A DNA stretch of 64,000 bases from Symbiodinium sp. CCMP2592 (lineage: Eukaryota; Sar; Dinophyceae; Suessiales; Symbiodiniaceae), in assembly GCA_905221615.1 (NCBI GenBank), contig CAJNDT010005545.1, positions 381,501 to 445,500 of the forward strand, in the 5' to 3' direction. The translations under genes were made by a program, and so were the position numbers. Below the pieces are notes generated by a model. The model had not been told where the DNA came from. It saw only the letters and a program-made list of their open reading frames with translations, and searched no databases. Below are positions 3,180 to 62,910 of this stretch, one piece after another. How positions within the stretch are numbered: position 1 is the stretch's first letter; the number at the start of each line of letters is the position of its first letter.

Positions 3180-6100
3180 CTCGGTGGTTACGGCCCCGGT
3201 TAGGCTGAGGACCCTCGAAGGGACCCTTATTTTGAGAACTATCCGTATGACACCTACTAGTATAGGATCCTTAAATCGGTGGTTCAAGCGGCTTACTCGG
3301 CTGAAATATTCCCTTCCTGGATCCCCTTTCCTTGCTTTCCTTAACCTGGATCCCATGATATATCTCGCTGCGAAACCGCACGAACCAATCGCAATAGAAC
3401 CTTTTCGAAACCCCGGAGTACCCTAAGACACCCCAGAGCACACTTTAGCACCACCAGAAAAAAGCTTCAAAACAAGCGCCTGCTCCGTCATCTCGCGGAA
3501 GAAATCTGCGCAGGTGAGCTTACAGGGCCCGTCGGCCAAGCTAAGTGCATCGGCCGCCTGCGTCAGAGCTTGTAGGTATGTGTTTATGCGTTAGTGTTAC
3601 AAGGTATAGGATTGAGATGAGGTTTGAGGGCATAGGCTCTTGTACCTCTCAATCGCTTTCAAAAGCTGGAATAGCCCAACCCAAAGTCCCAACCCCCCGA
3701 CGTCCCAAGCCCTGAAGTGCCGAAATCCAACACCTCAAGACCAGAAAGCGCCTAGACCGCCCTCATACCTGTGAGAACCCTTCAAGCCCTTCCGAATACC
3801 AAAGCCCTTATCCCTGAACCCTAAACCCTAAGCCCTAAACCCTAATTCCTAAACCGTAAACCCTAATCCCTATACCCTAAACCCGAATCCCTAAACCCTA
3901 ACCCCTAAACCCTCAACCCTAAACCCTCAACCCTAAACCCTCCCCAAGCCGCCTGCAGCATCGCCGCGCTACAGAGCGAAGCCCAAGAAGAGTTCGGCTC
4001 CGAGTCAGGGCAGAGGAGCGAAAACCTAAGAGATCTATTGGGTACGGCCCCCACTCAGTAATAGTTGAGTAATATTCGTAATATAGATAGCCCTATTATA
4101 TTTTAGACTCTTACTGTATGGGGGCCGTACCTACCAGGTGATTCGTTGTTTTTTGTGCTTGTTATAAGGGCTCCTTTTTGGGTTTAGGGTTTACGTAGGG
4201 TTGGTTTGAAAGACTGGCTTTTGAAGATTTTGTGCGAAGAAGCTGAAGGATTTTGGCATGCAGAGTTTGGGGTGGTGGCAATTAGAGCAACAAAGCGCTT
4301 TGGCTTTTCCGTTGGGCTTGGGGCTTTTCCCCGTTTGGAGAATTTTCGCCAGTAGGCCTTTTTGATTCTTCCGCTTGTTCTCTACGAGCTCGTCATGTGA
4401 GGTCTGGGTTGAGATTCATCATAAAGTTCGATATCTGGGGCTTGAGATCGGGAGGTTAGGATCATCAAAACCCGAACCGCAATCTCACAACTTTGAACTC
4501 CCAAACTGAAAGAACCTCAATTGAAATCCTAAAACTCTGTGCAAGCGCCAATCGAAACCCGAAAACAACTCGGTACACAGTATTCCGTTTCGCCGAGTTC
4601 ATCTTGGATCCAAAGGCCATTGCTAAGTTGATCGGTGCCCGCCCAGCCCAAGAAGAAGTTTCCCCAGGGGCACTGCAACACTTTAGGGTTGACCTTAAGC
4701 CGGAATAACCTACCTTTTTAAGGACGTGTATAAGGAGGTCATAAAAAGGAACCACCAAAAAGGTAGGTTATTCAGGGTTAAGGTAGGGTCTTAGGGCTTC
4801 GGGCTTCGAGTTTTACGGGTTTAGGGTTAAATGTCGTGTGCACCGACTCCAGGGTTTTAGGTGCGGGCTTGGGGTTGAGGGGTTGGGGGTTGAGGGTTGA
4901 GGGTTTAGGGTTTAGGGTTTAGGGTTTAGGGTTGAGGGTTTAGGGTTTATAGGGTTGAGGGTATAGGGTTTTGGGGCTTGAAGTTTTTCTCATAAACGGT
5001 GGTTAAAGCTACATTGGGTCTTACAGCACTAGGGACTGTACACAGAAATGCCACCCGAAACTTCAAAGACGAAAATCCGCCGAAGCCCGGACCCAAAGAT
5101 CTCCCAAACCCTCAAATGAGAGTTTCCCAGAATAGGGGACCCTAATATAGTACTGTACCCTAAATAGTATGATCCTGATTTTAAGGACCCCAAACTATTC
5201 GGAAACTCTAAACCCTAAACCCGTTATAGAACCCTGAGAGCCCTTTAAAGGAACCCTAAAAGATACCTTTAAAGGTACCCCTACTTTTCGGAAACTCCCC
5301 AATTCGCGGCACAGAAACGCCACCAGCTGCAGTTGGAGATCTTTCTGCACTCTCCTGGGCTTTGAGAGGGACATACCTAAATCATATTAAAAATCCTACT
5401 ATAATTTAAGGCATATTCCTTAATTAAGGGATATTGGAACCCCCTAAACCCTAAACTCTCTAGATCCCTTATAGACCCCTTAAAAGGAACCCTAACCCTA
5501 GGTATTCCTTAATTAAGGGATATTGGAGTCTCTGGGTAACCTTTCTGGGGGTACTTTAAGGCCTCTGGGCTTCGTTTAAAGGGTTACTATAAGGGTTCCT
5601 TTAAAGGGTTACGATAAGGGTTCCTTTACAGTAGAAGCCAGAAAGTTGGAATATGATTATCCTAAACCCTTTATGGTAAATTATAGGGTATCCTACCCTG
5701 AAACCATATTCCAACTTTCTGGAGTTCCCTTTACAGGGTTACTGTAAGGGTACTATAAGGGTTCGTCATGAGCTTTGAAGTAACCAGGGTTTATTTAGGA
5801 TTTAGGGTGTGGGTTTAGGGAATGGTTCCCTTAAAGTAACTCCCAAAAAAGTGTTAAAGTATGGTACTCCAAAGCCAAGCCTCTCTTTCTGCACATCCTC
5901 AAGGAACTCCGTATGGTCACCTTGTGTAGAGAGGCTTAATGACATTTCGCAGGGCTTGCTGGCTTGCTGGGGGTTTTGAAAGCGGGTATTATAGAGGGTC
6001 ATACAGGATTCTACGGCTGTAAAGGGATGTCACCACCGTAGAGGATTCTTATGCATGTAGCAAGACGGATTCACTGAAGTCCCTTGAAGCCAGGGACCCA

Positions 6101-62910: not shown

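What the first reader, a model, noticed from the sequence alone, without database searches (positions are those of the whole stretch)
5118..60510. Unrelated MITE families share one compound architecture containing telomeric repeats
M1 (5118, 18280, 18806, 60318), M2 (5371, 19637), M6 (49702), M12 (27189), and less cleanly M3 (28718, 41915) and M15 (24856) show the same order. A terminus is followed by GGTTCCTTTAAAGGG/TCTATAAGGG modules, then TTTAGGG repeats, then a repeated terminus and the rest of the element. The module is common to families with different ends, so it is not simple element divergence.
Basis: seen in the sequence. Interest (0 to 1): 0.9.

Follow-up and report, generated by a model that had tools for sequence, protein, structure and literature searches.

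The report
Shared spacer between doubled MITE ends
In a dinoflagellate genome, several families of tiny jumping genes with different ends carry a doubled end with a similar telomere-like spacer between the two copies, a recurrent way of rebuilding transposon ends that also seeds tandem satellite DNA.

Summary
The pattern is real. The genome is a dinoflagellate's (429 exact spliced-leader copies, control 0). In ten terminus classes (M6, M6b and perhaps M24 related), some MITE copies read terminus - GGG-word spacer - terminus again - body - opposite terminus. Of 81 spacer clusters, 38 have the same class on both sides and 7 a different one (shuffled mean 9 of 45). Orientation is strict: M1 terminus then spacer 321, spacer inverted 1; M20 92 and 1. 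Searching only for doubled M1 termini gave 523; of 72 spacers examined, 64 are this module, 4 telomeric. The 2-bp target duplication lies outside the outer terminus (25 of 41, expected 5), not the inner (4, expected 3): the compound behaves as one unit. Each M1 end doubles itself (44 of 46). TTTAGGG is in 32 of 79 modules. Best reading: terminus duplication with template switching at GGG microhomology, then spread by transposition and tandem amplification; a transposition-enhancing role is possible, untested. Closest known: tandem-TIR MULEs and Sleeping Beauty IR/DR ends, for which I met no spacer shared across families.

The parts
60317..60339 (+). M1 outer terminus (L type)
   Evidence: the 2-bp TSD TG outside it matches the right flank
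60339..60407 (+). module with GGG words ending in TTTAGGG
60408..60511 (+). M1 inner terminus, body and opposite terminus
5276..5300 (-). M1 outer terminus
   Evidence: start counted by hand
5209..5275 (-). module with CCCTAAA (TTTAGGG on the minus strand)
5117..5208 (-). M1 inner terminus, body, far terminus
18458..18490 (-). M1 outer terminus (unassigned; R-like by eye)
18387..18457 (-). module, close to the variant in locus L076
18279..18386 (-). M1 inner terminus, body, far terminus
19483..19577 (-).
   Evidence: sub-coordinates counted by hand on the printout
5357..5536 (-). M2 compound: outer terminus 5501-5536, module 5443-5500, inner terminus 5415-5443, far end degenerate
19637..19834 (+). 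M2 compound: outer terminus 19637-19672, module 19673-19731, inner terminus 19732-19763 (outermost bases missing), right end to 19834
   Evidence: module nearly identical by eye to that at 5443-5500
49704..49941 (+). M6 compound: outer terminus 49704-49737, module 49738-49814, inner terminus 49815-49849, right end 49914-49941
27185..27351 (-). M12 compound: far end 27185-27203, inner terminus 27273-27293, module 27294-27336, short outer terminus 27337-27351
   Evidence: reading only
41924..42067 (+). M3 with module 41924-41970, inner terminus 41971-42001, right end 42041-42067; outer terminus not recognised
28718..28881 (-). M3 with module 28806-28865; outer terminus very short, TTTAGGG on the outer side
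   Evidence: reading only

Best explanation
These are non-autonomous TIR elements (MITEs) of several families in a dinoflagellate, some copies of which carry a rebuilt end: the terminal 15-40 bp is doubled in direct orientation and the two copies are separated by a module, mostly 35-80 bp, of GGG-ending words, often closed by TTTAGGG. Shown: order, strict orientation, same-class and same-end identity of the two copies, outer TSD, one exact join at hundreds of places, tandem [terminus-module] arrays. Inferred: when a terminus is broken or re-synthesised (for example after transposase cleavage), the growing strand leaves the native sequence at its first GGG/GGGTT word. It copies a GGG-rich template (a module in another element, or an interstitial telomeric array) and returns by microhomology to the start of the same terminus. 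The outer terminus then serves as the new end, so the compound transposes as a unit; unequal exchange between doubled termini makes (terminus-module)n satellites. Also inferred, weaker: doubled transposase sites and a phased GGG array may help transposition, as in IR/DR ends, and so be kept.
For: Orientation 321:1 for M1 and 92:1 for M20; M6 122 and M3 83 with reversed-pattern control 0 (inverted-module control not run for these two). Doubled M1 termini found without using the module: 523; of 72 spacers examined (of 100 listed) 50 have two or more module words by strict count, 14 more are degenerate modules by eye, 4 are telomeric, 4 are neither. Family of outer and inner copy agrees in 38 of 45 clusters with both called, shuffled mean 8.8, maximum 19. 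M1 end type agrees in 44 of 46 assignable places, shuffled mean 24.5, 0 of 20,000 shuffles reach it (from the 58 records with arrays collapsed, L082 dropped and two unassigned places left out). In L-type M1, outer and inner copies of one element are more alike than copies of different elements (2.14 vs 2.86 edits, n=28, 0 of 20,000 permutations). Outer TSD 25 of 41, expected 5.2; inner 4, expected 3.0. Junctions: native and compound sequences diverge right after a shared word: M3 AATAGGGTT, M6 CTAGGGTT or GTAGGTT, M20 TTAGGGTTCCTT, M24 GTGGGGTT, M1L GGGGTACCTT (read by eye). Modules of different classes are alike: 123 of 1,787 cross-class pairs exceed the 99.9% level of random 60-base genome windows, e.g. 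M3/M20 34 of 35 bases, M6b/M1R 45 of 51 (some modules are longer than 60 bases, and M6/M6b count as different). Mosaics L082, L089, L109, L110 join one family's terminus and module to another family (by eye). One exact telomere-terminus join (25 bases) occurs 457 times. Arrays: C979 with 19 listed units of 97 bp and C358 with 10 units. Compounds at both ends with like modules: L124, L125.
Against: R-type M1 shows no within-element similarity (n=16, p 0.68), so those may be old founder lineages rather than fresh events. The number of independent events is not established: nearest-neighbour modules fall in the same terminus class in 41 of 79 (18 by shuffling), so much of the spread is by descent. 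The donor of the module is not identified. Microhomology was read by eye, not tested against a model. 13 of 81 modules have no known terminus on either side, 16 only an inner and 7 only an outer one; inverted termini were called upstream in 16 of 81, so the caller has a high background. No transposase was sought and no evidence of function was obtained. The inner terminus often lacks its outermost bases (e.g. TTTAGAG), which fits a repair join but weakens an IR/DR role.
Confidence: 0.5

Rival explanations
1. A reverse transcriptase (telomerase or another) writes the spacer at a break in the terminus: it extends a 3' end in GGG along an RNA with a telomere template, so G-strand words are laid down from the outer copy inward and end in TTTAGGG.
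For: The G strand runs inward (321:1, 92:1). TTTAGGG is on that strand in 32 of 79 modules, CCCTAAA in none, and in 31 of the 79 it lies within the last 32 bases. Four of 72 spacers are mainly telomeric repeats, e.g. L119, L118. Outer copies tend to end in GGG or GGGTT, in register with the repeat (by eye). PMC7215372 (abstract and one section read) reports telomeric insertions whose break ends were in register, and in mouse and horse some with a stretch copied from telomerase RNA.
Against: The module has variable numbers and order of words. Of 191 telomeric arrays in 264 kb, those away from MITE termini show no such association (2 with words upstream, 3 downstream). The 10 M3 and 4 M20 modules lack TTTAGGG.
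Confidence: 0.12
2. The doubled terminus plus GGG array is chiefly a selected IR/DR-like end: families acquired it in parallel because a shared transposase or host factor binds doubled termini and helically spaced GGG sites.
For: GGG spacing peaks at 11-12 bases (143 of 279 gaps). M1, M2 and M21 show 2-bp TSDs, so one transposase group is possible. Some compounds are symmetric (L124, L125). Sleeping Beauty ends have doubled binding sites (PMC7827188, passages), and in one MULE family tandem-TIR copies outnumber the single-TIR copy (PMC3310237, passages).
Against: Simple copies outnumber compounds: 3 clear compounds of 19 M1 elements outside seeded spots, 2 more partial. Inner termini are often truncated. 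No transposase or binding data.
Confidence: 0.2
3. Ordinary nesting: MITEs insert beside a background GGG or telomeric repeat, and the outer terminus is a leftover of another insertion.
For: MITEs and telomeric arrays are both dense here (191 arrays in 264 kb). 76 M1 ends lie near CCCTAAA repeats. Seven clusters have mismatched families, and L141 seems to hold a nested element.
Against: 38 matched against 7 mismatched families; end-type agreement; inner TSD not above chance; 321:1 orientation.
Confidence: 0.06
4. One ancestral compound gave rise to all families, and only termini and bodies diverged.
For: The modules are alike across families; bodies of different families use similar GGG and TA words (by eye).
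Against: Outer and inner termini would have had to change together in every family while the module stayed. M1 has compounds at both of its unlike ends. Simple paired copies were found in 8 of the 10 classes searched (not in M3, and M22 had no hits).
Confidence: 0.07

Closest known systems
Tandem-TIR Mutator-like elements (Ferguson and Jiang 2012, PMC3310237; passages read)
   Same: Extra terminal repeats in tandem, TSD outside the external copy and none recognised at the internal one, some compounds amplified, slippage or acquisition discussed for the origin.
   Different: There long TIRs of MULEs, in tomato mostly doubled at both ends (48 of 61), with no shared spacer in the passages I read. 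Here short termini of several families, doubled mostly at one end in what I saw, with one kind of module between the copies.
IR/DR ends of Sleeping Beauty (PMC7827188; passages read)
   Same: Outer and inner direct copies of the binding site in a terminal repeat, with an extra enhancer-like element on one side.
   Different: No transposase, binding or enhancer function shown here; TSDs are not restricted to TA (8 of the 25 matched ones are TA).
Tetris foldback element of Drosophila virilis (PMC4079207; abstract and outline read)
   Same: Tandem repeats inside terminal repeats that seed satellite arrays; a MITE sharing the same ends.
   Different: One element with a repeat of about 220 bp; here a spacer shared by several families.
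Short interstitial telomeric sequences inserted during break repair (PMC7215372; abstract and one section read)
   Same: Telomeric repeats at junctions, bases in register at the break, occasional duplication of the target.
   Different: Here the telomeric part is inside a transposing unit and follows other GGG words.
Dinoflagellate introner elements (PMC7789003, passages; PMC11453091, passages)
   Same: Short elements with inverted repeats in great numbers in dinoflagellates.
   Different: Introners lie in introns with direct repeats at splice sites; I did not test whether these MITEs are introns.

Membership tests
MITE (non-autonomous TIR DNA transposon) | short element with terminal inverted repeats | tested here: met
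   Paired ends '+-' in M1, M2, M6, M6b, M12, M20, M21, M23, mostly about 90-150 bp apart where listed; M3 pairs were rare at that stringency
MITE (non-autonomous TIR DNA transposon) | target-site duplication | tested here: met
   2 bp in M1 compounds 25 of 41; innermost M1 pairs 12 of 47, M2 7 of 9, M21 9 of 14 (for M21 a 4-bp frame scores equally); not resolved for M6, M6b, M20, M23; too few pairs for M3 and M24
MITE (non-autonomous TIR DNA transposon) | high copy number | tested here: met
   M1 16-mer 12,865 + 12,857 exact copies, reversed control 0 + 1
MITE (non-autonomous TIR DNA transposon) | mobilised by a transposase of a related autonomous element | not tested
   no search for transposases was run
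Tandem-TIR MULE | second terminal repeat in tandem, TSD only outside | tested here: met
Tandem-TIR MULE | MULE-type TSD (usually 8-9 bp, recalled) | tested here: not met
   best-scoring TSD length 2 bp for M1, M2 and M21; other classes not resolved
IR/DR element (Sleeping Beauty type) | outer and inner direct copies in the terminal repeat | tested here: met
   doubled at both ends only in L124 and L125 among those read
IR/DR element (Sleeping Beauty type) | TA target duplication of Tc1/mariner elements | tested here: not met
   17 of the 25 matched dinucleotides are not TA (TG, TC, AA, TT, GA, CG, CT, GG)
IR/DR element (Sleeping Beauty type) | both copies bound by transposase | not testable with these tools
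   needs protein and binding assay
Telomerase-inserted interstitial telomeric sequence | uninterrupted telomeric repeats inserted at a break, empty allele known | tested here: inconclusive
   4 of 72 spacers mainly telomeric; no empty sites available

The most novel reading that the evidence does not exclude
Termini cut by a transposase are rebuilt by an RNA-templated step: a telomerase-like enzyme extends the GGG-ending 3' strand of the cut terminus with telomere-like words, and the product is joined to the element's own start, so that telomere synthesis machinery creates a new class of transposon end shared by unrelated families.
Probability: 0.08. Interest if true: 0.88.

Novelty: new variant of a known kind. 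Interest (0 to 1): 0.62.

Why it matters
It suggests that one end-rebuilding process acts on several transposon families in the same genome and leaves a common, strictly oriented spacer. That gives hundreds of natural junctions for working out how tandem terminal repeats arise, a question the MULE paper left open. The same units become satellite arrays, so it links MITEs, interstitial telomeric repeats and satellite birth in dinoflagellates.

Tried and rejected
Telomerase healing as a general source was weighed and set low: telomeric arrays away from MITE termini show no module association, and the 10 M3 and 4 M20 modules have no TTTAGGG. An earlier idea of a 4-bp TSD for M1 was dropped; the signal is a 2-bp TSD plus the conserved outer T/A of the terminus. 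The null was inflated by pairing members of one family and was replaced. The exact module pattern was not found in the viral contigs or the prokaryote genome contigs; these are not collections of dinoflagellate genomes, so this says nothing about spread. Two non-repeat open frames of the window gave no Pfam match at the curated cut-off (one sub-threshold hit, Fanconi_C, E 0.099). Literature searches listed no paper whose title or abstract start described a spacer shared by different MITE families; many more papers matched than were listed, and most subscription papers are not held, so this is not proof of absence.

Full report
Source. The window is G000:C4939:381501-445500 of a 1.098-Gb assembly in 5,383 contigs. 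The dinoflagellate spliced-leader sequence (recalled) occurs 217 + 212 times exactly, reversed control 0, so the host is a dinoflagellate. TTTAGGG is the telomere repeat reported for dinoflagellates (PMC11453091, passages). The species is not known to me.

What is in the window. One more M1 compound lies at 19,483-19,577 on the minus strand. The module word GGTTCCTTTAAAGGG with up to two mismatches is found 12 times, 0.3 expected. The two M2 compounds, 14 kb apart, carry nearly the same module (by eye).

Sampling. I fetched 20 stretches of 10 kb around exact module words on contig C1 and 55 stretches of 800 bases around further listed words on contigs C2 to C11. With the window this gave 81 module clusters. 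This sample is centred on exact module words, so it is probably biased towards young copies and says nothing about how common compounds are. Later sets: 40 M1 compounds chosen from the first 100 listed places, 8 doubled-terminus loci, and 20 M20 loci.

Duplicated termini. With module words masked, the flank before the module recurs directly after it at p<=0.01 in 29 of 81 clusters (0.8 expected); inverted recurrence at that level is seen in 14. Four of the 29 do not look like terminus pairs. Classified by 11 terminus consensuses, 38 clusters have the same class on both sides, 7 different, 7 outer only, 16 inner only, 13 neither. Among the 45 with both called, shuffling gives 8.8 matches on average and at most 19. 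The chance level of single calls is not negligible: an inverted terminus upstream was called in 16 of 81. Classes seen with both copies matched: M1 15, M3 9, M20 5, M6 2, M23 2, and one each of M2, M6b, M21, M22, M24. M6, M6b and perhaps M24 have related ends. M12 was seen only in the window, and a further family (called M25) in one locus, L110.

Orientation and order, genome-wide. M1 terminus followed after 4-34 bases by the module: 188 + 133; the same with the module reverse-complemented: 1. M20: 53 + 39 against 1. M6: 49 + 73 (29 of the 100 listed places sit in two tandem arrays). M3: 38 + 45. Reversed-pattern controls were 0 in each; the inverted-module control was not run for M6 and M3. 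A search that ignores the module and asks only for two direct M1 termini 62-92 bases apart gives 250 + 273, control 0. Of 72 spacers that I took from the 100 listed, 50 have two or more module words by strict count, 14 more are degenerate modules by eye, 4 are telomeric repeats (one with module words further on), and 4 are neither. In the 264 kb of long loci, 11 doubled termini were found, 8 with a module word. The module thus tends to go with doubled termini, and doubled termini with the module.

Each end doubles itself. M1 has two distinguishable ends. In the 58 records, outer and inner copies are both left type in 36 and both right type in 16; 3 are discordant and 3 have one end unassigned. 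Many of these come from two arrays (L003, L085). With one record per place and L082 dropped (its inner call is not an M1 terminus), 44 of 46 assignable places agree, 24.5 expected by shuffling, none of 20,000 shuffles reaching it; two places were unassignable. For left-type compounds the two copies in one element share variants (2.14 edits within, 2.86 between, 28 loci, 0 of 20,000 permutations). For right-type compounds they do not (16 loci, p 0.68). So two or more formation events are likely in M1, while the right-type set may descend from a few founders.

The compound is the inserted unit. In 41 M1 compounds with a readable right end (arrays L003 and L085, repeat records and records without a right end left out), the dinucleotide outside the outer terminus equals that outside the right end in 25 (5.2 expected); for the inner terminus the figure is 4 (3.0 expected). 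Eight of the 25 are TA, the rest mixed. Innermost element pairs show 2-bp duplications in M2 (7 of 9), M21 (9 of 14; a 4-bp frame scores equally) and more weakly M1 (12 of 47, many being inner copies of compounds or old elements); M6, M6b, M20 and M23 were not resolved. One exact 25-base join of telomeric repeat and truncated terminus occurs 230 + 227 times, whereas telomeric repeat in the opposite orientation within 14 bases of the terminus occurs 42 + 34 times, mostly before an untruncated TGGGAG-type end.

Anatomy of the module. In 79 modules the median length is 67 bases (10th-90th percentile 35-79). GGG-to-GGG spacing is 11-12 bases in 143 of 279 gaps and 7 in 37. TTTAGGG is in 32, CCCTAAA in none, and 31 have it in the last 32 bases; random DNA of the same lengths has it in 6.8%. 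None of the 10 M3 and 4 M20 modules in that set has it; several of these end in GGGTACTATAATA or the like. The weak M3 at 28718 in the window does carry one, on the outer side. Modules are alike across classes (123 of 1,787 cross-class pairs above the 99.9% level of random 60-base genome windows; some modules are longer than that) but also cluster by class (nearest neighbour in the same class 41 of 79, 18 by shuffling). So the module was probably both passed between families and inherited within them.

Junctions. Comparing native and compound ends by eye, the sequences part right after a shared word: AATAGGGTT (M3), CTAGGGTT or GTAGGTT (M6), TTAGGGTTCCTT (M20), GTGGGGTT (M24), GGGGTACCTT (M1 left). 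Inner joins overlap the start of the terminus (TAAT in M20, TATA in M3, GTT in M23) or cut into it (M1 TTTAGAG, TTTAGGGTTTCC). Mosaics exist: M1 terminus and module before M3 (L082), M6b (L089), M24 (L109), and an M1 terminus plus module between two copies of another family's terminus (L110) (by eye). This is what template switching at short shared words would leave. It is an inference, not shown.

Arrays and symmetric forms. [Terminus-module] units form tandem arrays: L003 and L025, L085, C979 with 19 listed units of 97 bases and C358 with 10 units, C862. Two M20 elements have doubled termini and like modules at both ends, L124 and L125, picked because one search listed facing hits there: the full IR/DR layout.

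Background. In 264 kb there are 191 arrays with at least two TTTAGGG within 30 bases. Seventeen have module words within 60 bases; near a MITE terminus these are upstream in 11 and downstream in 1, elsewhere 2 and 3. Outside the seeded spots 3 of 19 M1 elements are clear compounds and 2 more partial (one further row, L012, dropped because it sits by a seeded module).

Verdict. The most likely history is repeated duplication of a terminus with a GGG-word filler copied from other elements, followed by transposition of the compound and tandem amplification. Whether the new end works better than the old is open. RNA-templated writing of the spacer cannot be excluded and is the boldest reading. As a kind it is a new variant of tandem-TIR or IR/DR ends; the feature I have not met before is the spacer shared by families with different termini (recalled knowledge and the searches listed, not an exhaustive review).

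Noticed in passing
window, 264 kb sample: Interstitial telomeric (TTTAGGG) arrays are very dense, 191 in 264 kb (the sample includes module-seeded loci); the window alone has 55 exact dimers. Their origin is unexplained.
   Followed up: partly
G000:C979:990988-992777 and C358:688766-689717: [M6 terminus-module] units in tandem, 97-bp period (19 listed units) and about 102 bp (10 units): satellite birth from a MITE end.
   Followed up: no
L074 and L075, bases just left of the module: Two loci share the same unknown sequence (TTGTACCGTTCGGGACACCCGAAGCC) before the module where the outer terminus should be; perhaps another repeat family.
   Followed up: no
L042, L049: Similar module variants sit inside long TTTAGGG arrays with no MITE terminus called in either locus.
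   Followed up: partly
window 1050-2843 (+): 597-residue open frame (stop to stop) with no Pfam match.
   Followed up: partly
window 57626-59806: Very long trinucleotide arrays (ACA, ACT, AGT, TAG), up to 177 copies.
   Followed up: no
window 7528-9039: A 456-bp tandem duplication followed by a 9-bp array GAACTTTTA of 56 copies.
   Followed up: no
L141: An M6-type element appears to sit between the module and the inner M20 terminus.
   Followed up: no
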